A stretch of DNA of 64,000 bases from Allobaculum mucilyticum. GTDB taxonomy: Bacteria; Bacillota_I; Bacilli_A; Erysipelotrichales; Erysipelotrichaceae. Of this stretch, positions 1 through 55,490 are shown piece by piece; within the stretch, counting starts at the first letter, position 1, and every line of letters begins with the position of its first letter. Where the stretch lies: contig NZ_CP078089.1 of the NCBI RefSeq assembly GCF_022701195.1, positions 2,294,001-2,358,000 on the forward strand, in the 5' to 3' direction. The position numbers and the translations under genes are program-made. The notes below the pieces were generated by a model, which saw only the letters and a program-made list of their open reading frames with translations, was not told where the DNA came from and ran no database searches.

Positions 1-81
1 TTCAAACGTCGATTCTTAAAATCACTGAAAGTACTCGAACAATCATAATCACAAAACGCAATAGCGTTGAGTCAATATCAA

Positions 82-1600
<1,519 letters not shown>

Positions 1601-1869
1601 AAGGAGAAAGTACAAGGAAGCCCAGAGATGAGAAAACTTATTTCTGGCAAATGAGTATTGAAGTGAAGTCTGTCTGTGAGGTTTTGGAAGAGCGATCTTC
1701 CAGAAGAATGGATCTTTGAAAACGAGCATCAGTAAGAAGACATAACAGTAAGGTCTGACGAAAAGTTGTAAAGATAACCGAAAGTCAAACGAAACAGTTA
1801 GAAAACAGTTCTTACGTAAATAAATATCTCGAAACAAGCATAACTAGTAACCATAAGTTATAGAGAACT

Positions 1870-4733
<2,864 letters not shown>

Positions 4734-4838
4734 AAGATTCGAGAGAGAAAGCAGCGTAAGCGAAGTTGAATAACTGTAAGCCTGAAGAAGTGTCGGAAGA
4801 CTGATGTTTGTTTTGAAAGATCCATTCAATCAATACTA

Positions 4839-4945
4839 GTGCAGTGGCGATAGCGAGCAGGATATACCTGTAACATCCCGAACACAGCAGTCAAGCTGCT
4901 CAACGCCGACGATAGCCGCAAGGCAAAAATAGGAAGCTGCTGAAC
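4839..4945 (+). rRNA. rrf: 5S ribosomal RNA, operon A
   Basis: It begins GTGCAGTGGCGATAGC and carries the conserved CCCGAACAC segment; it ends in GAAGCTGCTGAAC about 105 bp after the 23S end. It differs from the operon B copy by a single base. The termini are approximate. Confidence 0.9.
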
Positions 4946-9672: not shown

Positions 9673-10524
9673 TCAGACAGTCAGAATGCCGAAGAACGAG
9701 CAGACCATAGCCAAGGCGATAATCGCGAAGATCACCTGGATGACACTCATTTTTCTTGAAGAGAGAAGCTTGTAGACTGCGAAGGTCAGAAGAGCGGGGA
9801 GCAGAGCAGGCATGATCTGATCCAGAACGTCATTCTGGATATTCAGAGCGACTTCTCCAAACGCAAACTCAAGACCCACCGTCATATGGATAACAGAAGG
9901 AATCAGAGCACCGACAACAGTCAGACCCATGATCGATGCAGCCTGTGTGAAAGTCTGCAGCTTGTCGCCTAAAGCAGTGATGAGTTTCAGACCGGACTCA
10001 TAGCCAAGATCAAAAAGCTTGAAGCGAACAAACAGGAAGACCACATTCAGGATCATCCAGATTACAGCACCGATCGGGTTGCCTTCCAGACCCATGTAAG
10101 CGGCAATGGATCCCATGATTGTCGGATAGAGAACCCAGATCAGGGTGTCGCCGATTCCGGCAAGCGGACCCATCATGCCGGTCTTGAAGTTCTGAACAGT
10201 TTCAAGAGCGTTCAGACGGTCTTTTTCTTCCATGGCAAGAGAAGCGCCAAGCAGGATGTTTCCCATCCAGGTGGTGGTGTTGAAGTACTTGAACTGATTG
10301 TCCAGCGAAGCTTTATAGTCTTCGTCATTGGGGTAGAGCTTGCGCAGAGCCTTTTCCAGACCGAATACAACGCCTGGGCCCTGCTGGCTTTCGTAGTTGA
10401 AGATATTGCAGGCCATGAACATATAGCGAAGGGCAGCCGTACGGATATCTTTTTTCGTCAGGACTTTTGAAGAATCCAGATTGTCTGCATTCTGAACAGA
10501 TTCGTTTGTCAGATTGTTATTCAT
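9673..10524 (-). CDS. PTS mannose-family EIID component
   Basis: Membrane subunit of the sugar transporter (283 residues from the chosen start). Family hallmarks are ALRYMFMACNIFNYESQQGPGVVF at the N-terminus and KTGMMGPLAGIGDTLIW in the middle, with several hydrophobic helices in the C-terminal half. The longer open frame extends upstream into EIIC, but ATG 10524 is preferred because GGAAGGAG lies just before it and the homology begins there. Its start overlaps the EIIC stop (ATGAATAA), as expected for coupled EIIC-EIID translation. With EIIC it forms the translocation channel. Confidence 0.9.
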   Translation of the reverse strand: MNNNLTNESVQNADNLDSSKVLTKKDIRTAALRYMFMACNIFNYESQQGPGVVFGLEKALRKLYPNDEDYKASLDNQFKYFNTTTWMGNILLGASLAMEEKDRLNALETVQNFKTGMMGPLAGIGDTLIWVLYPTIMGSIAAYMGLEGNPIGAVIWMILNVVFLFVRFKLFDLGYESGLKLITALGDKLQTFTQAASIMGLTVVGALIPSVIHMTVGLEFAFGEVALNIQNDVLDQIMPALLPALLTFAVYKLLSSRKMSVIQVIFAIIALAMVCSFFGILTV

Positions 10525-11323
10525 CCCAGTCGTCTCCTTCCTCTTCGATTGCGGCAGATCCGGCAGAAGCAGTGGCTGCAGCAGGTTTGGATGATGCGGT
10601 TGTGAAGTAGTAGTAAGCCAGGGCAAGGCCAACGATCGATACGCCCAGCATCGGAATGTTCAGGTAAGCGGAAAGAACGAAACCGGCCAGAAGCATGGAC
10701 AGATATTTTTTCGCTGGCATAACCTGAAGCAGAAGAGCAATACCGACAACCGGAAGCATGTTTCCGGCGATCGACAGACCATTTGTGAACCATTCCGGAA
10801 CTACGGAAAGAATGAAGCTGACAATCTGTTCACCGAAGATGACGCAGAGTGCTGTTGGAAGAGCAGTGGAAAGCATGAAGATCACGGGACCAAGCCAGAG
10901 AATGCGGTTCATTTTTTTGAAGTTGAGCGCATCACAGGCTTTTTTTGCGGCGTTTGCAACATAGGTGTTGAGCAGCTTTGCAAGAACATCGAGCTGAATG
11001 CCGAGCATTCCGACCGGAACACCAACCGCAAGAGCAACCGCTTTTGCGGAATCCAGATCACCTGTTGTCCGGCAGGCAACGAATATGCCGACCAGCGCCG
11101 CCAGTCCCCAGTTCGGGACTGAACTTCCTCCGATATTCGCAACACCAAGATTCATCAGCTGGAACGTACCGCCGATCATAAGAGCAGTTGTAAGATCCCC
11201 CATGATGATGCCGGCCGGAACCGAGATCATGATCGGGAACTAAGTCATCAGGACCAGACCCTGCTGGTCAATGACCATCCAGCAGGCCAGCAGGATGATC
11301 AATACAGCCTGTAAGATTTCCAT
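10517..11323 (-). pseudogene. PTS mannose-family EIIC component with in-frame TAG
   Basis: Polytopic sugar channel subunit. Full length would be 268 codons, the normal size, from ATG 11323, which has a good GAGAGGAAAC ribosome site. The first 26 residues form a membrane helix (MEILQAVLIILLACW) ending DQQGLVLMT; codon 27 is TAG (11242-11240), and the frame then continues FPIMISVPAGIIMGD to the end without other damage. A shorter product could start at the ATG at 11230, but it would lack the first helix. Family motifs (GDLTTALMIGGTFQLMNLG and GIQLDVLAK) are intact. Possible explanations are a recent nonsense mutation, suppression or readthrough, or a base-call error. TAG acts as a normal stop for several other genes in the window. 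Confidence 0.85.
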
Positions 11324-11343
11324 ATTCAGTTTCCTCTCCTGTT

Positions 11344-14221: not shown

Positions 14222-15145
14222 ATGCGTTGTCGTTATTGCAGCACTGTTTCACATACCTCATCAGGTTTCTGCCCCAACTGCGGAATGCCTTATGACGATG
14301 AGTCATTTGTGGAAGACAGTTCAGAAATGACAAACTTAGTGGATCCAACAGAGATGAATAGCTGGATCAATCCGCAGAACCCGATGTCTGACGAACGAAG
14401 CAGAAAGGAACCGAAAATCCAGAACCCTCAGGCACCAGCTGCGGCTTCTTCTCGCCCTGGACAGCTTCCGCCAGTTATCCCCTCCACACCAAAGAAGAAG
14501 TCCCACAAGAGAACATGGATTCTGCTGTCTGTTCTCATAATTGTCTTTATTGCTGGCAGCGGATTCGGATATTCCTTCTCGAACAACAGGCAGGCTGAAG
14601 ATGCTTCCGGTTCTTCCCGTGCAGCAGATGTGGTGAGTATCGATCCCGAAAAGAAAGAAGTCATAGATGAGATTGAAACCGGCATGCTCTCAAGAACGCA
14701 GGCAGTCCAGCAGCTGATATCAGAAGGATATACGAACGCAGATGCAAACAGCCTGGTTGATTCTCTGAACATAAACTGGAAAGAACTCGCCCTGGCCAGG
14801 GCGAAGAGCTATCTGAGATGGTGTGCAGAAAACGAACTGACAGACTATACTGAGACTTCTCTGCTGCGAAAGCTGGTTACCCTGAACGGGTTCACCAGGA
14901 GTGAAGCCCAGTGGGCCGTCGCTCAGATCAATGAATCTTACTGGTTTGAGGAGACTGGAATTCCTGGATGGATGGATTCTGAAGAAAATTATTATGGAGA
15001 TGCCGAGGGAAATGCTGAGGGAGCACCGGAGGAATACTATTTGGATCCTAGCGTGCCGAATTGGGATGATTCTGAAACAGAGCCTAACATCGACCCATAT
15101 GAAGCAACAGAATACCAGGAGCCTGATAATACTATTGGAGCTTGA
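14222..15145 (+). CDS. Zinc-ribbon / membrane / Ltp-like domain protein, paralogue 1
   Basis: About 307 residues, in order: an N-terminal zinc ribbon with two CxxC pairs (CRYCSTVSHTSSGFCPNCGMPY); a disordered acidic linker; a basic KKSHKR stretch followed by one membrane helix (ILLSVLIIVFIAGSGFGY, residues about 100-118); then an extracellular helical domain resembling the Ltp repeat. In the last, SRTQAVQQLISEGYTNADAN, VDSLNINWKELALARAKSYL and SLLRKLVTLNGFTRSEAQWA fit the Ltp pattern of a short helix-turn-helix ending in DW.E.AL.xAKxYL. Ltp is the lipoprotein by which temperate streptococcal phages block DNA injection by other phages; that role is only a lead here. ATG 14222 is chosen because GGAGG ends 8 nt upstream and it matches the paralogue start M-x-C-R-Y-C. 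First of four tandem copies. Confidence 0.8.
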   Translation: MRCRYCSTVSHTSSGFCPNCGMPYDDESFVEDSSEMTNLVDPTEMNSWINPQNPMSDERSRKEPKIQNPQAPAAASSRPGQLPPVIPSTPKKKSHKRTWILLSVLIIVFIAGSGFGYSFSNNRQAEDASGSSRAADVVSIDPEKKEVIDEIETGMLSRTQAVQQLISEGYTNADANSLVDSLNINWKELALARAKSYLRWCAENELTDYTETSLLRKLVTLNGFTRSEAQWAVAQINESYWFEETGIPGWMDSEENYYGDAEGNAEGAPEEYYLDPSVPNWDDSETEPNIDPYEATEYQEPDNTIGA

Positions 15146-15167
15146 TGTTTTTAACCAGAAATATGGA

Positions 15168-15216
15168 ACTCGATTCAACAGAAAGATCCCGCAGCCAATA
15201 AAGACTGCGGGTTTTA
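15168..15216 (+). terminator. Terminator of paralogue 1, in a repeated segment
   Basis: CCCGCAG (15188-15194) pairs with CTGCGGG (15205-15211), followed by TTTTAT. It belongs to a segment (GAACTCGATTCAACAGAAAG...) repeated after paralogue 2 and, degraded, after paralogue 3. Confidence 0.85.
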
Positions 15217-15298
15217 TCTGATCCAGCTTTTTACAGAATGAACAGGTCATGATGACGAAAGGGTTTGAGTGGAAGCGGAGGTGGATGCGGTAAGAGGG

Positions 15299-15402
15299 AA
15301 GAACAATTCAATATTGAATAGTGAAGAATTAGCAGAGTTCTATTAAAAAGTGATAGTTCTCCCTAGAATCGGATATGAATTCTTTCAAATCAAAAGGGAG
15401 GA
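15299..15402 (+). repeat. Repeated leader of the Ltp-like paralogues, copy 1
   Basis: It contains AATTCAATATTGAATAG (self-complementary core), a T/A-rich stretch, then CCTAGAATCGGATATGAATTC and the GGGAGG ribosome site. Near-identical copies precede paralogue 3 (16459-16562) and, more diverged, paralogue 4 (17401-17508). The duplicated unit therefore includes regulatory sequence and gene. A promoter is likely inside, but I cannot fix its boxes. Confidence 0.75.
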
Positions 15403-15408
15403 ATGACG

Positions 15409-16299
15409 ATGCACTGTCGGTATTGCAGCAGAGATTCACAGACCACTTCGGCTTACTGCCCGTATTGCGGAATGCCGTATGAGGAAAAGTCACTGATCGA
15501 AGATAATACGGAGAAAACAAAACTAGCAGACTTGGATGATGACAATGACCGAACGATTGTGCAGAATCCGGAGTCTGAAGAACAGAACTCAGTTGTTCAG
15601 AAGATCCAGTATCCCGGTGCTGATTATCTTCGCGAAAAGCAGAGCACTTCAACGATTCAGATTACTTCCCAAACTGAATCCGCGAGAAGAAAATGGATTC
15701 TGCTGTCTGTCCTCATAATTGTCTTTATTGCCGGCAGCGGATTCGGATACTTCTTCTGGAACAGGCCGGCTGGAGATGCATCCGGTTCATTCCGGATGAC
15801 AGGTATAGAGATTGTCGACCCCGAAAAGATAGAAGTCATAGATATGATTGAAGAAAACCTGCTCTCAAGAACGCAGGCAATCGAACGGCTGAGATCAGAA
15901 GGCTACTCAGACGCAGATGCAGTCAGTCTGGTTGATTCTCTGAACATGAACTGGAAAGAACTTGCCCTGGCCAGGGGGAAGAACTATCTGAAGTGGTGTG
16001 CTGAACACGAACTGACAGATTATACCGAGACTTCTCTGCTGCGAAAGCTAGTTACCATGAACGGATTCACCAGGAGTGAAGCCCAGTGGGCAGTCGCTGA
16101 GATCAATGGATCTCACTGGTTTGAGCGGGTCGGAATTCCCGGATGGAAAGAGGCTGATGAGACATGGCATACGTATTATCCAGATCCGGATGAAGAGTAT
16201 CTGTGGGGTTCCGATGATGCAGAGTTCCCTGAGCCCCCATATTATGAAGAAGATTCATATGTGCCTTACGACGAACCATTAGAAAATTACGGCGCCTGA
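15409..16299 (+). CDS. Zinc-ribbon / membrane / Ltp-like domain protein, paralogue 2
   Basis: 296 residues with the same layout as paralogue 1: zinc ribbon CRYCSRDSQTTSAYCPYCGMPY, acidic Thr/Asp linker, RRK then membrane helix ILLSVLIIVFIAGSGFGYFFW, and an Ltp-like domain (SRTQAIERLRSEGYSDADAV, NMNWKELALARGKNYLKW, SLLRKLVTMNGFTRSEAQWA). It ends with an Asp/Glu/Tyr/Pro-rich tail. Two ATG codons lie near the GGGAGG ribosome site; 15409 has the correct 7-nt spacing, whereas 15403 is too close. It is the copy most similar to paralogue 1, so the two arose by recent tandem duplication. By the positive-inside rule the zinc ribbon faces the cytoplasm and the Ltp-like part the outside. Confidence 0.8.
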   Translation: MHCRYCSRDSQTTSAYCPYCGMPYEEKSLIEDNTEKTKLADLDDDNDRTIVQNPESEEQNSVVQKIQYPGADYLREKQSTSTIQITSQTESARRKWILLSVLIIVFIAGSGFGYFFWNRPAGDASGSFRMTGIEIVDPEKIEVIDMIEENLLSRTQAIERLRSEGYSDADAVSLVDSLNMNWKELALARGKNYLKWCAEHELTDYTETSLLRKLVTMNGFTRSEAQWAVAEINGSHWFERVGIPGWKEADETWHTYYPDPDEEYLWGSDDAEFPEPPYYEEDSYVPYDEPLENYGA

Positions 16300-16323
16300 T
16301 GATGATTTTCAATCAAGAAATAT

Positions 16324-16376
16324 GGAACTCGATTCAACAGAAAGATCCCGCAGCCAATGAAGACTGCGGTTTTTGT
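16324..16376 (+). terminator. Terminator of paralogue 2, repeat of the first
   Basis: CCGCAG / CTGCGG with the same loop as the terminator after paralogue 1, followed by TTTTTG. The flanking GAACTCGATTCAACAGAAAG is identical to the first copy. Confidence 0.85.
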
Positions 16377-16458
16377 CTGGTCCGGTTTTCCACAAAATGA
16401 GCAGCTCACGCAGGCTAACAGCATTAGACCGCAGTACAAAGGGATGCTGTAAGCGGAA

Positions 16459-16562
16459 AGAACAATTCAATATTGAATAGTGAATAATCAGTAATGTTCT
16501 ATTAAAAAACAATAGTTCTCCCTAGAATCGGATATGAATTCTTTCAAATCAGAAGGGAGGAA
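16459..16562 (+). repeat. Repeated leader of the Ltp-like paralogues, copy 2
   Basis: Nearly identical to 15299-15402: AACAATTCAATATTGAATAGTG, then CCTAGAATCGGATATGAATTC and GGGAGG. Confidence 0.75.
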
Positions 16563-16567
16563 TGGCG

Positions 16568-17291
16568 ATGCACTGTAGGTACTGTAGCAGAGATTCACAG
16601 ACCGCCTCAGCTTACTGTCCGTATGGTGGCATTCCTTATGATGAAGAGTCGCTGATCGAAGATAATTCAGAAAAAACAAGTTTAGTTGACTTGGATGATG
16701 ACAATGACCGGACAATTGTGCAGAATCCGGAGTCTGAAGAACAGAACATAGTTACTCAGGAGATCCAGTATCCCGGAGCTGATTATCTTCGCGAAAGGCA
16801 GAGTACTTCAACGATCCAGATTGCTTCACGAACTAAATCCACCAGAAGAAAATGGATTCTGACTGGCATCCTGATCTTCCTTCTTGCAGCTGTTGGAATT
16901 TTTGGATGGAACAGGCAATGCAAATGAGAATTACTTATCAATCCGATCGTCAATTACGATGGTTACCGATGCCGAACAGAGGGATGTTCTGGAGAAAGTT
17001 TATTGGTTCATGACGTCAAAAAGTAAGACAATCGAAAGGCTGAGCAAGTCTAGAGGCTATTCTGCTGACTCGGCAGCCCGCATTCTTGATTCTTTACAGA
17101 TTGACTGGAAAAAAATCGTACTTGTCAGAACAGAAGAGTATCTGATCTGGGATGAAGCAGATGAGCAGCCTGCTCCTACAAAAGAAGCAATGTTTGAGTT
17201 TCTATGCAAAGACCTTGGATTCAGCGAGTATGAGGCAAGATGGGCAGTCGAGCAGATCAGCGAATCGCGCTGGGGTACAGAAGACTTGTAA
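16568..17291 (+). pseudogene. Zinc-ribbon / Ltp-like paralogue 3, frameshifted
   Basis: The first frame (16568-16927) encodes the zinc ribbon (CRYCSRDSQTASAYCPYGG; the last CxxC has lost its first Cys to Gly), the acidic linker and the membrane helix, then stops at GWNRQCK. The rest continues in the +1 frame from NENYLSIRSSI to the end at 17291, with TIERLSKSRGYSADSAARILDSLQIDWKKIVLVRTEEYL as the Ltp-like motif. Alignment with paralogue 4 shows one extra base between 16905 and 16922. The extracellular part is shorter than in copies 1 and 2 and has no acidic tail. The Cys loss fits either real decay or a poor base call. Confidence 0.7.
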
Positions 17292-17400
17292 TCTTCAACT
17301 TAGAAATACGAAACTCGATTCAATAGAAATAGAACCCGCAGCCAAAGCAGGCGAAAGCCTTTGTTGGCGAGTATTTGGGTATGCTGTAATAGAAGGAAAA

Positions 17401-17508
17401 TTCAGTTTTGCATAATGAAAATTTAGCAGCGTTCTGTTAAAAGACGCTCATTCTCCCTAGAATCAGATATGAAATCTGAAATGAATTCATTCGAATCAGA
17501 AGGGAGAA
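17401..17508 (+). repeat. Diverged leader of paralogue 4
   Basis: It keeps GTTCT, TTCTCCCTAGAATC, GATATGAAATC and an AAGGGAGA ribosome site from the repeated leader, but the AATTCAATATTGAATAG part is mostly lost. The preceding 17309-17345 is a degenerate copy of the repeated terminator, without a clean T run. Confidence 0.5.
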
Positions 17509-17514
17509 ATGACA

Positions 17515-18242
17515 ATGCACTGTCGGTATTGCAACAGAGATGCGCAGAGCGCTTCAGGTTACTGTCCATATTGCGGAATGCCTTACGAAGATGAGTCGCT
17601 GATTGCGGATCAATCGGAGAAAACAAGTCTGCTGGGCATGGAGGATTACAATGACCGGACGATTGTGCAGAATTCGGTTTCTGGAAATCAGAACACAGCT
17701 GGCCAGAAGATCCAGTATCCCGGAGCTAATAATCTTCACCATGGACAGAACTCTTCAGCGATCCTTCAGCGATCCATGCAGCTTCTCGAAAAAAATCCGC
17801 CAGAAAGAAATGGATTCTGACTGGCGTCCTGGCGGTCCTTATTGCAGTTATTGGAATTGTCGGATGGAACTGGTATTCAAACGAGAATTACTTATCAATC
17901 CGGTCGTCGATTTCGATGGTTACGGATCACGATCAGAGGATTGTTCTGGAATACATCAACGAAATAAATCCGTCAAGAAGTGAGGCAGTCGAAGCACTGA
18001 ACGAGAATGCAGGTATTAAATATGGCGAAGCGTCCGGTCTTCTTGACTCTTTACAGATCGACTGGAAAAAAGTTGCCCGCCACAGAACGGATTACTATCT
18101 GAACTGGTGTGAAGAAAACAATGAAACTATTCCGACAAAACAGCAAATGTACCACCTGCTCACTGAAGTCTCTAAATTCAGCGACGATGACGCAAGCTGG
18201 GCAGTCGATCACATCAGCGAATCTCGCTGGGGATCTAACTGA
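17515..18242 (+). pseudogene. Zinc-ribbon / Ltp-like paralogue 4, frame shift at an A7 run
   Basis: The zinc ribbon (CRYCNRDAQSASGYCPYCGMPY) and linker are in the first frame, which ends at 17820. From KKWILTGVLAVLIAVIGIVGW (membrane helix) the protein continues in the -1 frame through SIRSSISMVTDHDQRIVLEYI and SGLLDSLQIDWKKVARHRTDYYL to the stop at 18242. The switch falls at seven A (17789-17795), read GAA AAA AAT in the first frame. That is also a classic -1 slippery arrangement (A AAA AAT), so programmed slippage cannot be excluded. A one-base deletion, real or technical, is the simpler reading. It is closest to paralogue 3. Confidence 0.68.
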
Positions 18243-25705: not shown

Positions 25706-26194
25706 TTGAAAAGCTCGCAGGTATCAAAACCTCAACAAAATTTAGAGCGCCCCAAAAAATCCGTTGATGTCATCGCAAAGGAAGTCATCAACGGAAAATG
25801 GGGCAACGGAGATGATCGGAAGAACCGGCTGACCGGTGCCGGATACGACTACAATGCCATTCATGCAAAGGTCAACGAGCTGCTGGGGCAGAAAGCGAAA
25901 CCTGCTGCTCCGGCAAAGAAGTCTAACGATGTGATTGCCCAGGAAGTTATTAACGGTAAGTGGGGTAATGGAAACGACCGGATCAACCGTTTGAAAGCTG
26001 CCGGTTATGATCCGACTGCTATTCAGGCTCTTGTTAATCAGAAACTGGGAGCAGGAAAAAAGAGCATTGATACGGTCGCCCGAGAGGTCATTGCGGGAAA
26101 ATGGGGTAATGGTCAGGACAGAGTAAACCGACTGAAGAAAGCCGGTTATGATCCGGCAAGCGTGCAGAAGCGCGTAAACGAGATTCTGAAATAG
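25706..26194 (+). pseudogene. CW_7-repeat lysin fragment fused to the IS end
   Basis: Three copies of the Cpl-7-type cell-wall-binding repeat (CW_7): SVDVIAKEVINGKWGNGDDR, NDVIAQEVINGKWGNGNDR and SIDTVAREVIAGKWGNGQDR, each followed by NRL..AGYD...... VN..L. Such repeats form the C-terminal, peptidoglycan-binding half of phage or bacterial lysozymes and amidases. The catalytic half is missing. The frame opens at a TTG inside the IS right end, and restoring the pre-insertion sequence gives a stop just upstream (TAA), so the lost half was not simply split by the IS. Presumably the remnant endolysin of the eroded prophage to the right. Expression would need an IS-borne promoter. Confidence 0.75.
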
Positions 26195-26933: not shown

Positions 26934-27202
26934 ATAGATGAATTCCAAAAGAACTTCTCAACGTTCTGAATAGAATTGCCAACTCGCTTCAAGCACCAGC
27001 ACATGCTCCTGCTAGTTCTACTCCACCTGAACAGCCAAAGCTCACGCTTGAAGAAGTCCGAGCCATTCTCGCTGAAAAATCCCGGTCCGGTTTTACAGCA
27101 AAGATTCAGCTGCTGCTTGAAAAGTATGGTGCAAGCAAACTTTCCAAGATTGATGCTGGACACTATCAGGCTCTTGTCAAAGATGTGGAGGAGCTGAAAT
27201 GA
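26934..27202 (+). pseudogene. Small phage-type gene upstream of DUF2800, frameshifted
   Basis: AAGGAGG (26919-26925) sits 8 nt before ATA 26934 where an ATG would be expected. DEFQK is followed, after one missing base in the A run at 26947-26950, by ELLNVLNRIANSLQAPAHAP, a Pro/Ala linker and TLEEVRAILAEKSRSGFTAKIQLLLEKYGASKLSKID, ending EELK. The stop overlaps the DUF2800 start (ATGA). Similar proteins of about 90 residues commonly precede DUF2800 in Bacillota phages and are sometimes annotated as 'rrp5-like'. The frame has no usable start codon because of the indel. Confidence 0.6.
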
Positions 27203-28308
27203 GTCATAGCATACTTTCTCCATCCTCGTCCCATCGTTGGCTTCATTGTACGCCATCCGCAAGGCTTGAAGAACCCTATCCGGATACTTCCGGTCTTGCA
27301 GCCAAAGAAGGAACAGCCGCTCATGCCCTGTGTGAGTACAAGCTGAAGACAGCGCTCGGCATGAAGTCGACTCGTCCCGAATCTGATTTCCAGGATGAAG
27401 CAATGGAACAGCACTCGGACGAATACGTCTCCTGGATTCTGGAAACTATCAAGGACGAGGTCAAGCCAGTCATCATGATTGAACAAAAGCTGGACCTCTC
27501 TGACTACGTTCCAGAAGGATTTGGTACAGCCGATTGCATTATCGCCAGCGGAAACAAGCTGCATGTGGTCGACTTCAAGTACGGCCTGGGCGTGTTGGTC
27601 AATGCAGAAAACAATACCCAAATGATGCTGTATGCACTTGGTGCCCTGGAACTGTTCGATAGCATTTACGACATTGAAACCATCGAAATGACAATATTCC
27701 AACCACGCAAAGAAAACATCAGCTCCTGGACCATCACACCCGATGAGCTAAAAACCTGGGCTTATGAGATTCTCAAGCCCAATGCAGAACTTGCCTTTAA
27801 CGGTGAAGGTGAACTTTGCAACGGTTCCTGGTGCCAGTTTTGCAAAGCCGCAGCCAAATGCAGAAAACGCGCTGAAGCCGCTCTGGAACTGGCCAAGGAT
27901 GAATTCAAAGATCCCACCAGCCTCTCCGATGAAGAAATCGAGCAGATTCTTCCAAAGCTGGATGATCTGATCAAATGGGCGGAAGAGATCAAAGACTACG
28001 CCCAACTGAAAGCGCTGAAGGGCAAAAAGTGGAGTGGCTTCAAGCTAGTCGCTGGCCGTTCCAATCGCAAGTACGTGAGTGAAGCCAAAGTCATCGCGGC
28101 TTGTCAGGCAGCCGGATTCACAGACATCTATAAGAAAAGTCTGAGAACCATCACAGATATGGAAAAAGTCATGACCAAGCCCGTCTTCCAGGAGATTCTA
28201 GGAAACCTGGTCACCAAACCAGTCGGAAAACCAACCCTGGTCCCTGTCTCAGACAAACGAAAAGAAATCGAATTTACGGAGGAAACTGAAAATGAAAGCA
28301 AACACTAA
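27199..28308 (+). CDS. DUF2800 family (RecB/Cas4-like nuclease fold) phage protein
   Basis: 369 residues. The start SHSILSPSSSHRWLHCTPSARLEE..., then GTAAHALCE, VDFKYGLGV and the cluster of Cys near CNGSWCQFCKAAAKCRKRA, define DUF2800, a PD-(D/E)xK/RecB-type nuclease family with an iron-sulphur-like Cys set, found in the replication/recombination cassettes of siphophages. Asp and Lys of VDFKYG are the predicted catalytic residues. Overlaps the small gene before it (ATGA) and DUF2815 after it (17 bp), so it is translated as part of an operon with the single-strand-binding protein and polymerase. Confidence 0.88.
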   Translation: MSHSILSPSSSHRWLHCTPSARLEEPYPDTSGLAAKEGTAAHALCEYKLKTALGMKSTRPESDFQDEAMEQHSDEYVSWILETIKDEVKPVIMIEQKLDLSDYVPEGFGTADCIIASGNKLHVVDFKYGLGVLVNAENNTQMMLYALGALELFDSIYDIETIEMTIFQPRKENISSWTITPDELKTWAYEILKPNAELAFNGEGELCNGSWCQFCKAAAKCRKRAEAALELAKDEFKDPTSLSDEEIEQILPKLDDLIKWAEEIKDYAQLKALKGKKWSGFKLVAGRSNRKYVSEAKVIAACQAAGFTDIYKKSLRTITDMEKVMTKPVFQEILGNLVTKPVGKPTLVPVSDKRKEIEFTEETENESKH

Positions 28309-28837
28309 AGTCGTAACCGGTAAAGAAACCCGCCTGTCCTACTTCAACGGATGGAAACCCATCTCCATCAATGGCGGAGATGAAAAATACTCTACCCAGA
28401 TCCTGATCCTCAAGGATGACCTGGATACACTGGCCGCTATTGAAAAAGCGGTAGATGCAGCCATCGAAAACGGTCTGGCCAAATTCGGAGGCAAGAAACC
28501 AAACAAACAGGCCATCAAACTCCCGCTGCGTGATGGTGATATCGAACGAGACGATGACGTCTACAAAGGCCACTACTTCCTGAACGCTTCCAGCATGGAA
28601 GCTCCACAGATCGTTGACCGTCACGTACAGCCAATCCTTGACCAGAGCGAAGTCTACTCCGGCTGCTATGCCAGAGTGTCTCTGAACTTCTATGCGTTCA
28701 ACACCAACGGCAACAAAGGTGTCGCCTGCGGTCTTGGCAATATTCAAAAGATCAAAGACGGTCCTCGGCTGGGCGGCAGAACAACCGCAAACGACGACTT
28801 CGTCAGTGAGGATGCCGACGATGACTTCCTCTCGTAG
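28292..28837 (+). CDS. DUF2815 family single-strand DNA-binding-like protein
   Basis: 181 residues. TRLSYFNGWKPISINGGDEKYSTQILI, then PLRDGD and GHYFLNASSMEAPQIVD, match DUF2815, an OB-fold protein adjacent to DUF2800 and DNA polymerase in phages, thought to bind single-stranded DNA. The acidic tail (NDDFVSEDADDDFLS) is typical of SSB-like proteins that recruit partners. Overlaps its neighbours by 17 bp on both sides. Confidence 0.88.
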   Translation: MKANTKVVTGKETRLSYFNGWKPISINGGDEKYSTQILILKDDLDTLAAIEKAVDAAIENGLAKFGGKKPNKQAIKLPLRDGDIERDDDVYKGHYFLNASSMEAPQIVDRHVQPILDQSEVYSGCYARVSLNFYAFNTNGNKGVACGLGNIQKIKDGPRLGGRTTANDDFVSEDADDDFLS

Positions 28838-30746
28838 GCTGTTCATCGACATCGAGACCTCTTCTACTACCGACTTATCCAAAGCTGGTGTTTACCGCTA
28901 TGCAGAGAGCGAGGATTTTCAAATCCTGCTCTTTGCATTTTCCTTTGATGGAGATCCCGTCGAAGTCATCGACATGAAGCACTTTGAAGTCCTGCCTGAT
29001 TTCCTAATCGAAGCCATTCTTGATCCGGATGTGATCAAAGTAGCGCATAACGCTGCCTTCGAAAGAATCTGTCTGTCCAGGTATTTCCGCAATCTTGGAA
29101 TGCTTGATGATTACGAGTTCCTTGATCCGGAAGACTGGCAATGTTCCATGGTCCATGCAGCCACGCTTGGACTGCCGCTTTCGTTGGACCAGCTCTCACA
29201 GGTGTTGAACCTGGAACGGCCAAAGCTCAAGGAAGGTAGAGCGCTCATCAAGATGTTCTGCAGCGGTCCCATCGAGCATGAAAATCCAGAAAAATGGCAG
29301 CTTTTCAAGGAGTACAACAAGCGGGATGTGGAGGCGGAAATCGAGATCGAACAGCGGTTGATAAAGTTTCCGGTCAGAGCGTCTATATGGACGGAGTACC
29401 AGTTGGATCAAAAGATCAACGATTTCGGTGTTCTGGTCGATATCAACCTGGCTGCTCATGCCCTGGAAATTAGTGAGACAGCCAAAGAATCGCTGCTCAA
29501 ACGTCTTCAGGAAATGACCGGATTGGAGAATCCAAACTCACCCTCACAGATGAAAGAGTGGCTTTTGCAGCAGAATCTGCCAACAGACACTCTCAACCAG
29601 AAAGCCATGAAGGTACTAATGGAGAAAGCCTCTAACAATATACGAACCGTTCTTGCTCTTCGTAACCAGCTGGCTATGGCCTCGGTTAAGAAGTATGAAG
29701 CCATGCTCAACTCGGCTTGTTCGGACGGACGAATTCGCGGGATGTTTCAATTCTACGGAGCCATTCGCACAGGCAGATATTCCGGAAGAATTGTGCAGCT
29801 CCAGAACCTCCCCAGGAACAAAATGCCCGATCTCAAAGAAGCAAGAAGTCTTGTTGCCGATAAGAATATACAAGCTCTGGAAATGCTGTATGACGATATT
29901 CCCGATACGCTTTCTCAGCTCATTAGAACTGCGCTGATCGCTCCAGACGGAAAAGACTTCATTGTCGCTGACTTCTCCGCGATCGAAGCCAGAGTTCTTT
30001 CCTGGCTGGCGGAAGAAGAATGGCGACAGGCAGTCTTCAAAGAGAACGGCGACATCTATTGCGAAACGGCCAGCCGAATGTTCAAGGTTCCCGTGGTCAA
30101 ACACGGTGTGAACGGTGATCTCAGACAGAAAGGCAAACAAGCAGAATTGGCCTGTGGCTATGGTGGCTCAGTAGGAGCCATGAAAGCCATGGGTGCATTG
30201 GATTTCGGAATGAAGGAAGAAGAACTCAAACCACTGGTTGATTCCTGGCGTGAAGCCAATCCGAAGATCGTGAAGTATTGGTGGGCAGTTGATGCTGCCA
30301 TCAAGAAAGCGATCAGGACCAAACAACCGGTGTTTCTAAAGAACCTGGTCTTCTCTTATTCGTCTGGCATCCTCTTCATTCAGCTTCCTTCTGGCAGGTC
30401 ACTGGCTTACCCAAAACCCAAGATCGAGAGCAATGAATATGGAACAGAATCGGTGACGTATATGGGGCTAGGCTTGAACAAGAAATGGGAACGACTGGAA
30501 AGCTACGGTCCGAAGTTTGTCGAAAACATCACCCAGGCTATCTCAAGAGATCTTCTCATGAATGCCATGAGCAACTGTCAAAAATACAAAATCGTCGCCC
30601 ATGTACACGATGAAATCATTGTCGAAGCCGACTCCTGTATGTCTGTTGAAACGATCTGCCAAAAGATGTGTGAGCTACCGCCTTGGGCTAACGGTCTGGT
30701 ACTCAATGCCGAAGGGTACAGAACTCCCTTCTATTGCAAAGATTAG
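28821..30746 (+). CDS. Phage-type family A DNA polymerase
   Basis: 641 residues from ATG 28821, chosen because homology begins at RRLFIDIETSS. The N-terminal 3'-5' exonuclease domain has FIDIETSS and VAHNAAFER. Polymerase motifs are complete: motif A VADFSAIEARVLSW, motif B RQKGKQAELACGYGG, motif C AHVHDEIIVE. It lacks the 5' nuclease domain of cellular Pol I, as usual for phage enzymes. It replicates the element's DNA together with the DUF2815 and DUF2800 proteins. Ends in TAG; the next gene starts 9 bp later. A helicase and other replication genes are not found nearby. Confidence 0.93.
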   Translation: MTSSRRLFIDIETSSTTDLSKAGVYRYAESEDFQILLFAFSFDGDPVEVIDMKHFEVLPDFLIEAILDPDVIKVAHNAAFERICLSRYFRNLGMLDDYEFLDPEDWQCSMVHAATLGLPLSLDQLSQVLNLERPKLKEGRALIKMFCSGPIEHENPEKWQLFKEYNKRDVEAEIEIEQRLIKFPVRASIWTEYQLDQKINDFGVLVDINLAAHALEISETAKESLLKRLQEMTGLENPNSPSQMKEWLLQQNLPTDTLNQKAMKVLMEKASNNIRTVLALRNQLAMASVKKYEAMLNSACSDGRIRGMFQFYGAIRTGRYSGRIVQLQNLPRNKMPDLKEARSLVADKNIQALEMLYDDIPDTLSQLIRTALIAPDGKDFIVADFSAIEARVLSWLAEEEWRQAVFKENGDIYCETASRMFKVPVVKHGVNGDLRQKGKQAELACGYGGSVGAMKAMGALDFGMKEEELKPLVDSWREANPKIVKYWWAVDAAIKKAIRTKQPVFLKNLVFSYSSGILFIQLPSGRSLAYPKPKIESNEYGTESVTYMGLGLNKKWERLESYGPKFVENITQAISRDLLMNAMSNCQKYKIVAHVHDEIIVEADSCMSVETICQKMCELPPWANGLVLNAEGYRTPFYCKD

Positions 30747-30755
30747 GAGAACAAC

Positions 30756-31163
30756 ATGGTCAGCAAGGAAAACAAGAAAACCATCATTGAAATGCGAAAA
30801 GCAAACAAAAGCTACGACTACATCGCCAGCCAGCTTAGTCTGACAAAGTCTGCTGTCCAAAACGTATGCAGACAGGCAGGGCTTGCGGGAAAGAAAGCCA
30901 AGCAGCGGAAAAGATGCAAACAGTGCGGAGCTCTTCTTCCTGAGGATGCTCCCAAAAGAAAGATCTTCTGTTGTCAGAAATGCCGTGAAGACTGGTGGAA
31001 CAAGCATCAGCATCTGGTCCATAAACGAAATCCAGTCATCACCTACTGCAAAACTTGTGGCAGTCCCATCGAGAATTACAAGAGCTATCAGAAGCAATAT
31101 TGCAATTCTCACTGCTTCCATATGGGTAAATTTGGTCGCGACAAAGCCATAAATTTGAAGTAA
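30756..31163 (+). CDS. Sigma-70-like HTH / zinc-finger protein of the element
   Basis: 135 residues. An N-terminal sigma-region-4-like helix-turn-helix (KKTIIEMRKANKSYDYIASQLSLTKSAVQNVCRQAG) is followed by two zinc-binding Cys groups (CKQCGALL...FCCQKCREDWW and YCKTCGSPI...YCNSHC). Proteins of this layout sit just upstream of serine recombinases in integrative elements of Bacillota and are often labelled 'RNA polymerase sigma-70'. It may control the recombinases. Belongs to the replication operon by spacing. Confidence 0.75.
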   Translation: MVSKENKKTIIEMRKANKSYDYIASQLSLTKSAVQNVCRQAGLAGKKAKQRKRCKQCGALLPEDAPKRKIFCCQKCREDWWNKHQHLVHKRNPVITYCKTCGSPIENYKSYQKQYCNSHCFHMGKFGRDKAINLK

Positions 31164-31233
31164 TCCTTACGTCGAATTTACTGGATAATACGGCCTTTCA
31201 GAGTGATATATGGACCAACGAAAGGAGATCCAC

Positions 31234-32430
31234 ATGATCAAACAACTGAAACGGGTCGCAGCCTATTGCAGAGTTTCGGTGGAATCCGAGTTGATGCAGT
31301 CCTCTATCACAAACCAGATCGCCCACTTCACCAACAAGATCAACAACAATCCGCTTTGGCAGAACGCAGGCGTATTTGCAGACTATGGCATCAGCGGAAC
31401 CAACACCAAGAAGCGCCCTCAGTTCAATCGAATGATCGCTTTGGCACTGCAGGGCAAGATCGATCTGATTCTGGCCAAATCCATCCAGCGTTTTGCCAGG
31501 AACACCGTCGATCTGTTAGCAACAATCCGTCAGCTCAAAGAACACAACGTGGAGGTTTTCTTTGAGAAAGAAAATATCTCCACATTCAGCCATGATGGAG
31601 AACTCATGCTTTCCATCATGGCTTCTTTTGCCCAGGAGGAAAGCCGCAGCATCTCTGAGAATGTCCGCTGGGGCATAATGAAGCGTTTTGAAAAGGGGCT
31701 GCCCAATGGCAGAAACCCAGTTTTCGGTTATGACTGGATCGATCAGGATCTGGTGGTCAACGAAAAAGAAGGCTGGATCGTAACTCAGATGTTCAAAGAC
31801 TATGCCTCCGGTATGCCTGTCAGTCACATTGCCAAATGGATGAACCAGACCGGCGTTACCACACGCAAGGGGAATAAGTTTCAAGCCTGCTCCATTAAGG
31901 CTATGCTGCGCAATCCGACCTATACAGGTGTTCTTCTTCTTTGCAAAGAGTACGTCGGTGATCCCATCATCCATGACCGGCACCTTAACCGAGGAGAACT
32001 TCCACAGTACCTGGTCGAGAACCATCACGAACCACTTGTTGATGAGGAGACTTGGGAAAGAGCTCAGGAACGGACAGAGAAAAACCGGCATCCCGGTCAC
32101 AGCAGAAAGAAATACAACACTTTTACCGGCAAGCTCAAATGCAAGAAATGCCACCGGAACTATCAGCGCATTGTCCAGAGTTATAAAGGTCAAAAAAACA
32201 TCTATTGGCAATGTTACTCGAGACGGTCGCACCTTGATGAGTGTGATTCCATGAACCTGTACGAAGAAGACCTGGAAAAGATTGCGGCCAGCATGCTGAA
32301 CATGAAAAAGCTCGATCCCATCATGTTCCGAGAACTGGTCGAGTGCATCGAAGTCGAACCAGACGGAACCCTCGAGTTCCATTTCACAGACGGAAGAAGA
32401 AAAACATGCAAGTACGAAAAATCCCTGTAA
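31234..32430 (+). CDS. Large serine recombinase 1
   Basis: 398 residues. The resolvase domain starts VAAYCRVSVESELMQSS (catalytic Ser in CRVS), with ILAKSIQRFARNT and QEESRSISENVRWG as conserved blocks. It is followed by a recombinase domain (FGYDWIDQDLVVNEKEGWIV) and a zinc ribbon (CKKCHRNY...CYSRRSHLDEC). ATG 31234 is used because AAAGGAG lies 8 nt before it; the earlier ATG 31210 is less well placed. Shorter than classical integrases (about 450-550), it lacks the long C-terminal coiled coil. It likely acts together with recombinase 2 to integrate or excise the element. Confidence 0.9.
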   Translation: MIKQLKRVAAYCRVSVESELMQSSITNQIAHFTNKINNNPLWQNAGVFADYGISGTNTKKRPQFNRMIALALQGKIDLILAKSIQRFARNTVDLLATIRQLKEHNVEVFFEKENISTFSHDGELMLSIMASFAQEESRSISENVRWGIMKRFEKGLPNGRNPVFGYDWIDQDLVVNEKEGWIVTQMFKDYASGMPVSHIAKWMNQTGVTTRKGNKFQACSIKAMLRNPTYTGVLLLCKEYVGDPIIHDRHLNRGELPQYLVENHHEPLVDEETWERAQERTEKNRHPGHSRKKYNTFTGKLKCKKCHRNYQRIVQSYKGQKNIYWQCYSRRSHLDECDSMNLYEEDLEKIAASMLNMKKLDPIMFRELVECIEVEPDGTLEFHFTDGRRKTCKYEKSL

Positions 32431-33980
32431 CCAGAACGATGGCCAGAGTTCAGCCCATCGTCGCCAGAAAAAATGTAGCTGCATACGCCAGAGTTTCCAC
32501 CGATCGGGACGAACAGCAAAGCAGCTATGAAACGCAGGTTTCCTACTACGAGAACATGATCCGTGAGCGGGCAGATTGGAATTACGTCAACGTTTATACG
32601 GATGAGGGTATTTCTGGAACCAGTACAGCCCACCGTGAAGGTTTCAAGCAGATGATCCAGGACGCACTGGATCACAAGATCGACCTGATAATCACCAAGT
32701 CCGTTAGCCGATTTGCCAGAAACACAGTCGACTCCCTGACCACTATTCGGGAACTCAAAGAACATGGCGTGGAGGTCTACTTCGAAAAAGAAAATATCTG
32801 GACCTTCGATGGCAAAGGAGAGTTGCTGCTGACCATCATGTCCTCACTGGCGCAGGAAGAAAGCCGCAGCATTTCTGAAAACGTGAAATGGGGCGTCCGG
32901 AAGAAATATGAAGAAGGGACCTACAAGATCCCTTACGGCAATCTGATGGGATACACCAGATCAGAAGACGGTGGAGTCAGGATCGTGGAGGAAGAAGCCG
33001 AGATTGTCAGATTGATCTTCCGGATGTTTTTGGAAGGAAATACCTACACCGACATCAAGAACTACCTGGAAAGCCAGCACATCAAGACCAAGTTTGGTCG
33101 AGATAAATGGGATCGAAATGTTATCAAGCAAATGCTCATGAACGAGAAGTATAAAGGTGATCTCCATCTTCAGAAGGTCTACACGCCTGACTTCATCACC
33201 AAAAAGCAGGTCAAGAACAAAGGCGCCATTCCTTCCTACTACATCACAAACTCTCACCAGGGTATCATTAGTGTTGAGGACTTTGACAAGGTCCAGAAGA
33301 TCATCAAAGACCGTAAGTACAGATATGGCAAAGAACGGCTTGGTTGCCATACACCTTACTCATTCAGCCACCGCGTTCAGTGTGCTATCTGCAAATCCTG
33401 GTATACCCGGAGCGTTACCACCCGGTCGAACGGAAAGAAAGTACCCGTGTGGTTATGCTGGAAGAATAAATACGAGAGCGACCAGCGATGCCCATCACAT
33501 CAGGTGCAAGAGAGTGTGTTGGAGCGGGAATTCGTGAATGCGCTCAATGAACTGCTTGAAGATAAGCAGAGCATCCTCAACGAATGGAGCGAAAAGTTCG
33601 ATGCCACTTACAACACCGAAAAGCACCAGATCAAAGCCGACCGCATCCAGGTAAGGATGGAGAAGATCGCTGAGAAGGCCGAAAAGCTGATCGAAGAAAC
33701 TCCTGCCAACTTCAACGAAGCCTACAACAAGCTGCTCATCGAATACGAGCAACTTGAGAAAGATCATGCCAAGCTGGCTGCTAAGATTAGAGACTTGCAG
33801 TATGAAGGCGAACGAACACAACATTATCTGGAGCTTCTCCAGAAATTGGACCATGTGGACGCTTTCGACGGAGATCTGGTCAGAGCAATGGTTGACAAGG
33901 TGATGGTGTACAAGAACCGGACGCTGGTCCTCCACTTTGTTGGAGACCGGAGGATCAAGCGAGAACCAGAGAAGAAGTGA
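32406..33980 (+). CDS. Large serine recombinase 2
   Basis: 524 residues from ATG 32406, which overlaps recombinase 1 by 25 bp. The resolvase domain has NVAAYARVSTDRDEQQSS (catalytic Ser), IITKSVSRFARNTVDS and QEESRSISENVKWG. A recombinase domain, zinc ribbon (CAICKSWYTRSVTT...CWKNKYESDQRCPSHQV) and a long coiled coil (about 420-490) follow, then a final beta domain. The coiled coil controls directionality in large serine integrases. The gene marks the right end of the mobile region; attachment sites were not found by eye. Confidence 0.93.
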   Translation: MQVRKIPVTRTMARVQPIVARKNVAAYARVSTDRDEQQSSYETQVSYYENMIRERADWNYVNVYTDEGISGTSTAHREGFKQMIQDALDHKIDLIITKSVSRFARNTVDSLTTIRELKEHGVEVYFEKENIWTFDGKGELLLTIMSSLAQEESRSISENVKWGVRKKYEEGTYKIPYGNLMGYTRSEDGGVRIVEEEAEIVRLIFRMFLEGNTYTDIKNYLESQHIKTKFGRDKWDRNVIKQMLMNEKYKGDLHLQKVYTPDFITKKQVKNKGAIPSYYITNSHQGIISVEDFDKVQKIIKDRKYRYGKERLGCHTPYSFSHRVQCAICKSWYTRSVTTRSNGKKVPVWLCWKNKYESDQRCPSHQVQESVLEREFVNALNELLEDKQSILNEWSEKFDATYNTEKHQIKADRIQVRMEKIAEKAEKLIEETPANFNEAYNKLLIEYEQLEKDHAKLAAKIRDLQYEGERTQHYLELLQKLDHVDAFDGDLVRAMVDKVMVYKNRTLVLHFVGDRRIKREPEKK

Positions 33981-34118: not shown

Positions 34119-35042
34119 TTATGATTCGCTGCAAAGCTTGTCAAGCGTTTTGAGGATAAGGTTGTAACGGCTGGTCAGAAGAGGGTCCGAAGCAAAGTAT
34201 GCCTTATGCCGTAAAAACCTTACTGTTAATAGAGATTTTAAATCAGAAGTAACGCTATCAAACATTTTTTGGCTAGTACAGACAGATTTAAACAACAAAA
34301 GTGACGCAATTAGGTCGTGAATAACATGATTGCTTAAACCGTTTTCAGCTGCCTTAACCGAAACAGCTTGAAGTTTCTTCAACTTAGATTTTACTTTAGG
34401 TGAGCATCTGAATTCCGCACCTTTTTTGGTATATGTGCTTCTTAGCGAATTCAATAGACAGTTATTATGAGCGCATGCATTCCGAATAAACTTGGAAGAA
34501 TAGATCAAAGGTAGCAAGTCCTTTACAAGTTCCGGGTTCTTGTTTTCGAAATACATCTGAAAAAGCTGAATAAACGAGTGATAAGTACAAACTTCTACAA
34601 ATACCCATACTGGCATCTTGTTATGATAATGCTGCTTCAAATCATAGGTTGCAGAATTTGTTTCTCGTAGTAAATCATTTTTTATTTCTGGGTGTTGAGT
34701 TAACAAGTCCTCTACAATTTTAAATCCGTCTTCATCTGGGTCATTCGTTATCGATCGAAGGAGCATCACTTTCAATTGATGTTCTATCGACAAACATAAA
34801 TCCAGTACTACATATCGAAGATGGGTGTCGAGAACTGATAATTCAACTAGATGAGCAAATTCAAGAGCCTGATACTGTCCGTTTTTATTTTTTAGATAGT
34901 TCTTTGTATAGGCTTTTAGCTTAAAGAGATAAGTATTATTCTCTAGAAATTCCTTTGCCTCTTCTTCAGAGATAATATTAAACTTAATTCCCTTATCACG
35001 TAGAAATCTAACTTGTTCATCAACTGTCAACTTTTCTTTCAT
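34119..35042 (-). CDS. Abi_2-family abortive infection protein (HEPN-type)
   Basis: About 307 residues. The N-terminal KLTVDEQVRFLRDKGIKFN...LENNTYLFKLKAYTKNY is the Abi_2 (AbiD/AbiF) start. RNACAHNN near residue 207 is the R-x4-H motif of HEPN ribonucleases, which kill or arrest the infected cell by cutting RNA. LSIEHQLKVMLLRSI is also conserved. ATG 35042 is preferred to the TTG at 35069, with AGGA in front. The gene is clearly more AT-rich than the neighbouring recombinases, a sign of separate transfer. It directly follows a broken copy of the helicase tail. Confidence 0.85.
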   Translation of the reverse strand: MKEKLTVDEQVRFLRDKGIKFNIISEEEAKEFLENNTYLFKLKAYTKNYLKNKNGQYQALEFAHLVELSVLDTHLRYVVLDLCLSIEHQLKVMLLRSITNDPDEDGFKIVEDLLTQHPEIKNDLLRETNSATYDLKQHYHNKMPVWVFVEVCTYHSFIQLFQMYFENKNPELVKDLLPLIYSSKFIRNACAHNNCLLNSLRSTYTKKGAEFRCSPKVKSKLKKLQAVSVKAAENGLSNHVIHDLIASLLLFKSVCTSQKMFDSVTSDLKSLLTVRFLRHKAYFASDPLLTSRYNLILKTLDKLCSES

Positions 35043-35059
35043 TATCCATTTTCCTGTTT

Positions 35060-35342
35060 CTATTCCCAAAACAGCTCATCCAGCTTCTCTTCTAATTTTC
35101 CTTCTTTGACCAATTCCAGAGAATCCACTTTCCTGAAATTGTTTTCTTTGATCTTTCCAGCGTAGTTGAAGCCAATAATGAAATTGGTCGCGATCTTGTA
35201 GATGATCTCCGTCGGTACCAGACCATAGACTTGTTTAGAGAAGATGCGTTGAAGTCTCTCCGTATCATCAGGATACAATTCCTCATATCCTTACTCTGGA
35301 ATAATCGTTTCACGATTTCGGCTGGATAAAATCCAGACTTCT
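35060..35342 (-). pseudogene. Diverged duplicate of the helicase 3' end
   Basis: This segment encodes KSGFYPAEIVKRLFQSKDM and, after a one-base loss near 35283, YPDDTERLQRIFSKQVYGLVPTEI...NNFRKVDSLELVKEGKLEEKLDELF, an imperfect copy of the last 94 residues of the helicase at 37169-40483. Substitutions are spread evenly and many are conservative, so it is an old or separately acquired copy rather than an assembly duplicate. With the intact tail it brackets the DUF262 gene as direct repeats of about 280 bp. Confidence 0.85.
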
Positions 35343-35359
35343 TGAAAATCTTCGAAATT

Positions 35360-37144: not shown

Positions 37145-37168
37145 ATTATTCCTTCATCCATAATGTGT

Positions 37169-53526: not shown

Positions 53527-53694
53527 AAGCAAGCCTTGTGAGTCACATCGAGTGATTCACAAAAGATGGCTCTTTGAAAACTTTACAGACAGACAAAGAA
53601 ATTCGAATATACATTCAAACGTCGATTCTTAAAATCACTGAAAGTACTCGAACAATCATAATCACAAAACGCAATAGCGTTGAGTCAATATCAA

Positions 53695-55220
<1,526 letters not shown>

Positions 55221-55490
55221 AAGGAGAAAGTACAAGGAAGCCCAGAGATGAGAAAACTTATTTCTGGCAAATGAGTATTGAAGTGAAGTCTGTCTGTGAG
55301 GTTTTGGAAGAGCGATCTTCCAGAAGAATGGATCTTTGAAAAACGAGCATCAGTAAGAAGACATAACAGTAAGGTCTGACGAAAAGTTGTAAAGATAACC
55401 GAAAGTCAAACGAAACAGTTAGAAAACAGTTCTTACGTAAATAAATATCTCGAAACAAGCATAACTAGTAACCATAAGTTATAGAGAACT

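What the first reader, a model, noticed from the sequence alone, without database searches (positions are those of the whole stretch)
14222..18242. Tandem family of zinc-ribbon, membrane-anchored Ltp-like proteins
Four paralogues in a row share a cytoplasmic zinc ribbon, one membrane helix and an external domain that fits the Ltp repeat known from phage superinfection exclusion. The external parts and tails vary between copies while leader and terminator are conserved, as expected for an expanding and diversifying set of cell-surface defence or sensing proteins. Zinc ribbon plus Ltp in a chromosomal array is not a described defence system to my knowledge.
Basis: partly seen in the sequence, partly recalled or inferred. 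Interest (0 to 1): 0.75.

Follow-up and report, generated by a model that had tools for sequence, protein, structure and literature searches.

The report
Tandem zinc-ribbon, membrane-anchored Ltp-repeat proteins
A bacterium carries four neighbouring genes for membrane-anchored proteins whose outer part folds like a phage protein that blocks DNA injection by other phages; one gene is a natural hybrid of its neighbours, two look broken, and a role in phage defence is plausible but unproven.

The parts
14222..15145 (+). Copy 1, intact, 307 aa: zinc-ribbon motif (C3, C6, C17, C20), linker, membrane helix, two Ltp repeats, acidic tail
14513..14569 (+). Copy 1 membrane helix, preceded by KKKSHKR (N-terminus probably inside)
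   Evidence: hydropathy 2.15 at aa 98
14639..14959 (+). Copy 1 external domain, two Ltp repeats (aa 156-186 and 189-240)
   Evidence: PF07553 27.6 bits; PHROG 4980 E 4.7e-15; fold match to 4EQQ
14960..15142 (+). Copy 1 acidic Tyr/Pro-rich tail (pI 4.05, net charge -18)
15188..15211 (.). Hairpin CCCGCAG...CTGCGGG after copy 1, terminator-like
   Evidence: scored on the - strand only
15283..15408 (+). Leader of copy 2, with perfect 14-bp palindrome at 15306-15319
15409..16299 (+). Copy 2, intact, 296 aa, chimeric: N-part like copies 3 and 4, membrane helix and ectodomain like copy 1
14513..15690 (+). Duplicated unit U1 (membrane helix of copy 1 to N-part of copy 2)
   Evidence: 916 of 1158 aligned bases identical to U2; one search shows identity falling at both edges
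15691..16849 (+). Duplicated unit U2 (membrane helix of copy 2 to N-part of copy 3)
16348..16369 (.). Terminator-like hairpin after copy 2
   Evidence: scored on the - strand only
16442..16567 (+). Leader of copy 3, palindrome at 16465-16478
16568..16927 (+). Copy 3, front part (zinc-ribbon motif lacking the fourth Cys, membrane helix), ends early
16938..17291 (+). Copy 3, external part (Ltp-like), open in another frame
   Evidence: PHROG 4980 E 0.0039; no PF07553 match
17515..17820 (+). Copy 4, front part (zinc-ribbon motif), ends early before the membrane helix
17802..18242 (+). Copy 4, membrane helix and external Ltp-like part in another frame
   Evidence: PHROG 4980 E 2.9e-6 for 17916-18239

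Best explanation
The genes encode host-chromosomal surface proteins of the Ltp kind. The zinc ribbon and linker stay in the cytoplasm, one helix spans the membrane, and a pair of acidic Ltp repeats (three helices each) sits on the outside, followed in copies 1 and 2 by an acidic flexible tail. By homology to TP-J34 Ltp, the likeliest action is that the negatively charged repeats catch the tape-measure protein of an incoming siphophage at the outer membrane face and stop DNA injection, with the membrane helix replacing Ltp's lipid anchor. The array grew by tandem duplication. One event had both edges at the conserved start of the membrane-helix codons and so joined the front of one gene to the ectodomain of its neighbour (copy 2). 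Copies 3 and 4 have since lost their frame. Shown: architecture, Ltp repeats and fold, chimera, breaks. Inferred: topology, phage exclusion, tape-measure target, function of the zinc ribbon and tail.
Confidence: 0.46

Rival explanations
1. A non-defence cell-surface protein: the Ltp repeats bind another protein or wall component (adhesion, wall organisation), as suggested for pneumococcal CbpL. The zinc ribbon plus helix is only this bacterium's common anchor.
For: The same genome has other zinc-ribbon, one-helix proteins with unrelated ectodomains, also in clusters: three at 1082-1086 kb, four at 1355-1362 kb, one at 1571 kb. CbpL carries an Ltp domain without lipobox. Several surveyed Ltp genes lie among genes that I read as housekeeping (read from protein starts, output partly cut).
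Against: The closest annotated phage matches are superinfection-exclusion or lipoprotein genes. The array is narrowly distributed, unlike a conserved wall factor: no full-length match in 4 same-genus genomes, of which only one is 98% complete and three are 58-67%.
Confidence: 0.28
2. An envelope-stress or antibiotic sensor of the TcaA/YvbJ-like zinc-ribbon membrane protein type, with signalling through the cytoplasmic ribbon.
For: Zinc-ribbon motif, Thr-containing linker, one helix, external domain. The comparison with TcaA/YvbJ is recalled and was not tested.
Against: The ectodomain is Ltp by sequence and fold; I recognised no signalling partner in the adjoining genes.
Confidence: 0.1
3. A decaying paralogue array without current function; the frame breaks are one stage of loss.
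For: Two of four copies broken, a zinc ligand lost in copy 3, lower or no PF07553 scores in copies 2-4, dN/dS 0.65 between the external parts of copies 3 and 4 (against 0.51 for copies 1 and 2; difference small and not tested), an in-frame stop in the nearby EIIC gene.
Against: Copies 1 and 2 are intact over about 300 aa with dN/dS 0.51 in the ectodomain and 0.27 in the N-part.
Confidence: 0.13

Closest known systems
Ltp of Streptococcus thermophilus phage TP-J34 (PDB 4EQQ; Pfam PF07553)
   Same: Two tandem three-helix repeats outside the membrane, acidic, same fold
   Different: Anchored by a helix behind a zinc ribbon instead of a lipid; insertion between the repeats; acidic C-terminal tails; chromosomal tandem array; no activity shown
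Zinc-ribbon, TM-anchored Ltp-repeat proteins of relatives (L122, L123, L124, L125, L127, L182)
   Same: N-terminal CxxC/CxxC motif, one helix, Ltp repeats outside
   Different: 3-6 canonical, well-scoring repeats (80-275 bits in PF07553 for the four scanned); single genes except the pair L125; L122 beside type III restriction, L123 beside Wadjet
Tandem array of four Ltp genes beside cas9-cas1 (L121)
   Same: Tandem chromosomal Ltp genes, two repeats each
   Different: Hydrophobic signal-like start and Ig-like domain (Big_2 in the one scanned), no zinc ribbon
CbpL of Streptococcus pneumoniae
   Same: Host-encoded, non-lipidated protein with an Ltp domain (PMC5137146, passages)
   Different: Choline-binding anchor and Excalibur domain; one repeat; studied for pathogenesis, role of its Ltp domain unsolved
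CwpV of Clostridioides difficile
   Same: Host-encoded surface protein with variable external repeats that stops infection after adsorption (PMC4737114, passages)
   Different: Wall-anchored; homology not tested here

Membership tests
Ltp (PF07553) repeat proteins | PF07553 match at or over the curated cut-off (23.2 bits) | tested here: met
   Copy 1: 27.6 bits, met. Copy 2: 16.8 bits, not met. Copy 4 external part: 19.1 bits, not met. Copy 3 external part: no match.
Ltp (PF07553) repeat proteins | Two tandem helical (HTH-type) repeats | tested here: met
   Independent repeat HMM in copies 1 and 2, not in the external parts of 3 and 4 at E 1e-4; six main helices in the models
Ltp (PF07553) repeat proteins | Fold of TP-J34 Ltp | tested here: met
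Ltp (PF07553) repeat proteins | Acidic repeat domain | tested here: met
   Ectodomain cores net -7 to -9
Ltp-type superinfection-exclusion lipoprotein | N-terminal lipobox cysteine (lipid anchor) | tested here: not met
   Membrane helix behind a zinc-ribbon motif; no lipobox start. Filed as an Ltp-repeat protein, not as an Ltp lipoprotein.
Ltp-type superinfection-exclusion lipoprotein | Encoded in a prophage lysogeny module | tested here: not met
   Neighbours are O-antigen-ligase-like, DUF6591, HTH and GH3 genes; phage-like genes only from about 27 kb
Ltp-type superinfection-exclusion lipoprotein | Blocks phage DNA injection via the tape-measure protein | not testable with these tools
   needs plaquing, adsorption and binding assays
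Known PADLOC defence system | Match to a PADLOC model with its partners | tested here: inconclusive
   Only weak ZorB and PDC-M14A matches, E 0.002 or worse, for copies 1 and 2; none for the external parts of 3 and 4
TcaA/YvbJ-type zinc-ribbon membrane proteins | Homologous ectodomain | not tested
   Resemblance in anchor recalled only

The most novel reading that the evidence does not exclude
The array is a host-encoded, recombination-driven repertoire of phage-injection blockers. The conserved start of the membrane-helix codons acts as a natural cross-over point at which fronts (zinc-ribbon sensors) and Ltp ectodomains are exchanged between neighbours, and the cytoplasmic zinc ribbon reports an injection attempt to the cell. 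That would be a two-sided Ltp system rather than a passive plug.
Probability: 0.08. Interest if true: 0.75.

Novelty: new variant of a known kind. Interest (0 to 1): 0.4.

Why it matters
Ltp has been studied as a prophage lipoprotein, although similar genes were known to be scattered in Gram-positive genomes (PMC3952083, passages). Here and in several relatives its repeats are carried by host proteins with a zinc ribbon and a membrane helix, sometimes in tandem and in three loci next to CRISPR-Cas, restriction or Wadjet genes. If they exclude phages, they are an overlooked host use of a phage weapon, with the anchor as the exchanged part. The chimera gives a concrete, testable case of how a surface gene gets a new outer domain in one step.

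Tried and rejected
Unique zinc-ribbon-Ltp system: rejected, because 7 of the 43 Ltp genes that I read have an N-terminal zinc-ribbon motif and a helix. My regular expression flagged 10; three (L139, L143, L145) were dropped on reading, being lipoproteins with CxxC pairs outside. The 43 include near-duplicate genomes and two genes of the own genome. Of the seven, four were given to Pfam: three (L122, L123, L182) show zinc-ribbon matches, all below cut-off, and L125 rests on cysteine spacing; L124, L127 and the second L125 gene were not scanned.

Close relatives elsewhere: viral-contig scan with copy 2 found no relative. The genome-contig scan with A3 used only two patterns and returned 3 zinc-ribbon look-alikes of Oribacterium, so it says little. 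Copy 1 in 59 genomes (the own one and 58 relatives): 6 of the 58 match, all in part (some frames read). Profile of copies 1 and 2 in 195 family genomes (own included): 12 others match, best the zinc-ribbon Ltp gene of G105 (L124) at E 4e-13.

Bias of the fold by Ltp rows: checked with a second model from the four own copies; the match to 4EQQ stays. RecX is second and weaker; not pursued. A PDB sequence search with profile A5 finds 4EQQ at 4e-26, but A5 holds 16 Ltp rows; copy 1 alone gives E 0.33.

Defence enrichment: 31 Ltp neighbourhoods (214 genes, within 4.5 kb) against 20 control regions (184 genes, central 10 kb) that I picked on contigs of the same genomes. The test was prompted by L121-L123, which are its only three clear positives; without them it is 0 of 28. 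Of the 38 neighbourhoods in the script's list, 3 near-duplicates (L132, L137, L151) and 4 in which my pattern found no Ltp frame (L138, L144, L157, L160) were dropped; L125 was left out as too short. PADLOC at E 1e-20 gave hits in both sets. In the controls these were helicase-, kinase- and candidate-type models (one PDC-S01 at 1e-165, PD-T4-6 at 1e-119); in the second half of the test set, DpdF, PsyrT and the like. In some searches only 25 of 63 and 25 of 52 families were shown, and alignment mode does not say which protein matched; Cas9/Cas1, REase_III and JetC/JetD were placed with the phmmer run. 'Clear system' is a post hoc judgement; 3 of 31 against 0 of 20 gives p 0.27. L157, dropped, lies beside genes that I read as type I restriction (not tested with a model).

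N-part tree: alone it resolves poorly (AU p 0.059 for the rival topologies), while helix plus ectodomain strongly supports 12|34. The chimera therefore rests on the site counts and unit identity, not on the N tree. The unit is not uniform: the tails fall to about 0.4 identity and a spacer to about 0.6.

Assembly error as the cause of the breaks: not excluded (genome completeness 92.5), but copy 3 also lost a cysteine, copy 4 has a tandem duplication, and long genes elsewhere in this assembly are open (for example 1070 and 827 aa).

Literature: 'zinc ribbon' with 'host cell surface-exposed lipoprotein' and with 'superinfection exclusion' gave 0 papers each in the PMC library; further listings. 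Six papers were seen in passages, none in full. No preprints or subscription papers were searched. The organism was not identified.

Full report
What is there. On the + strand at 14222-18242 four paralogous genes follow each other. Copy 1 (307 aa) and copy 2 (296 aa) are intact. Their order of parts is: zinc-ribbon motif C3-C6...C17-C20, a linker, positively charged residues (KKKSHKR in copy 1, ARRK in copy 2), one hydrophobic helix, an external domain of about 107 aa, and an acidic tail (net -18 and -16). The ribbon is called from cysteine spacing and from paralogues of the same genome that pass the Pfam cut-off (L099, L100); the window copies' own Pfam zinc-ribbon matches are below it. Copy 3 loses its frame just after the helix and lacks the fourth zinc-ligand cysteine; copy 4 loses its frame just before the helix; the external parts of both are open in another frame. 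The long leader with the perfect palindrome ATTCAATATTGAAT precedes copies 2 and 3; a G+C-rich hairpin follows copies 1 and 2.

How the copies arose. Copy 1 and copy 2 agree poorly in the N-part (42% aa, dS about 1.7) but well in helix and ectodomain (86% and 78% aa; dS 0.22 and 0.25). Copy 2 and copy 3 show the reverse: 83% aa (dS 0.48) in the N-part, 34% in the ectodomain. Counting sites where copy 2 agrees with only one neighbour gives 14 (copy 1) against 90 (copy 3) in the N-part, and 151 against 25 in helix plus ectodomain (Fisher p 1e-34). Seen as units, 14513-15690 and 15691-16849 are identical at 916 of 1158 aligned bases (79%; 20 shuffles: mean 42%, maximum 45%), and identity falls at both edges, within the codons for R-T/K-W-I-L at the start of the helix. 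One tandem duplication between two genes with both ends in this short conserved stretch yields exactly this chimera. The N-part tree taken alone is not decisive (AU p 0.059). The acidic tails of copies 1 and 2 can hardly be aligned, while the untranslated stretch behind them is almost identical: composition is kept, sequence is not.

Distribution. The full-length protein is found in none of 4 same-genus genomes (one 98% complete, the others 58-67%), and only partial matches occur in 6 of 58 relatives. PF07553 itself occurs in 15 of 195 family genomes, 36 of 294 order genomes and 13 of 392 phylum genomes, the own genome counted in each. Among 43 Ltp genes whose architecture I read (near-duplicates and two own genes included), 7 have an N-terminal zinc-ribbon motif with a helix (L122, L123, L124, two tandem genes in L125, L127, L182); three more that the script flagged were dropped on reading. 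Tandem Ltp genes also occur in L121 (four) and L125 (two). The own genome uses the same type of anchor for other ectodomains in clusters at 1082-1086 kb and 1355-1362 kb and at 1571 kb, and has two further Ltp genes, one TM-anchored and one with a lipobox.

Is it defence? For: homology to a proven exclusion protein; the acidic ectodomain that the Ltp model needs (PMC3952083, passages read); and the neighbourhoods of L121 (Cas9, Cas1), L122 (type III restriction enzyme) and L123 (JetC, JetD of Wadjet). Against: those three loci prompted the counted test and are its only clear positives; with them it is 3 of 31 against 0 of 20 controls, p 0.27, without them 0 of 28, and not all PADLOC families were listed. 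Several Ltp genes lie among genes that read as housekeeping (output partly cut). The array's own neighbours are not defence genes, although a restriction/AbiD/GmrSD-type block lies at 34.1-42.4 kb of the window. A host Ltp domain can sit in a protein studied for something else: CbpL (PMC5137146, passages). Two recent S. thermophilus defence surveys that I saw in passages speak of Ltp, or of the lipoproteins, as prophage-encoded (PMC11514479, PMC12322248); the 2014 Ltp paper says the family is scattered in genomes of phages and bacteria.

Verdict. These are Ltp-repeat proteins with a zinc-ribbon/helix anchor, not Ltp lipoproteins, since the lipid anchor and prophage setting are not met. Phage-injection blocking is the most likely single role (0.46, lowered from 0.50 when I saw that the neighbour test holds no independent support). 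The combination is recurrent and, by my searches, unnamed in print (no paper in the PMC library holds both terms). The chimera and the partial decay are the parts best shown here.

Noticed in passing
window 34119-42447 (-): Defence-like block: AbiD/Abi_2 (34119-35069), GmrSD_N protein (35360-37144), ResIII helicase (37169-40483), Eco57I-type methylase (40483-42447).
   Followed up: partly
window 27199-33980 (+): Phage-like genes (DUF2800, DNA polymerase A, serine recombinase) just before the restriction block, probably an element remnant.
   Followed up: no
window 10517-11343 (-): PTS EIIC gene with an in-frame stop near its start, so probably broken or misassembled.
   Followed up: partly
L098 2434-7149, L099 3544-10749, L100 2500-4581 (own genome): Further zinc-ribbon, one-helix proteins with other ectodomains, in clusters; two of those in L098, scanned, give no Pfam match at E 0.01.
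   Followed up: partly
L121 4472-12894: Four tandem Ltp genes (Big_2 domain in the one scanned) directly before a cas9-cas1 locus, and a 108-aa protein behind cas1 that I read as cas2.
   Followed up: partly
L123 1-7164: Wadjet-like jetC-jetD genes followed by a zinc-ribbon/PASTA/Ltp gene.
   Followed up: partly
L129 5626-8274: Ltp gene between what reads as an integrase and a repressor, a lysogeny-module setting like that of ltp in phage TP-J34 (neighbours not identified with a model).
   Followed up: no
L152 7110-12998, L155 3141-7787: Giant proteins (1963 and 1549 aa) with 6 and 8 Ltp repeats, mostly at their C-terminal ends.
   Followed up: no
window 79-4945 and 53692-58579 (+): Two rRNA operons in the same orientation near the two ends of the window, a possible site of large duplications or deletions.
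   Followed up: no
window 25706-26194 (+): Small protein with three CW_7 repeats behind an ISL3 transposase.
   Followed up: no
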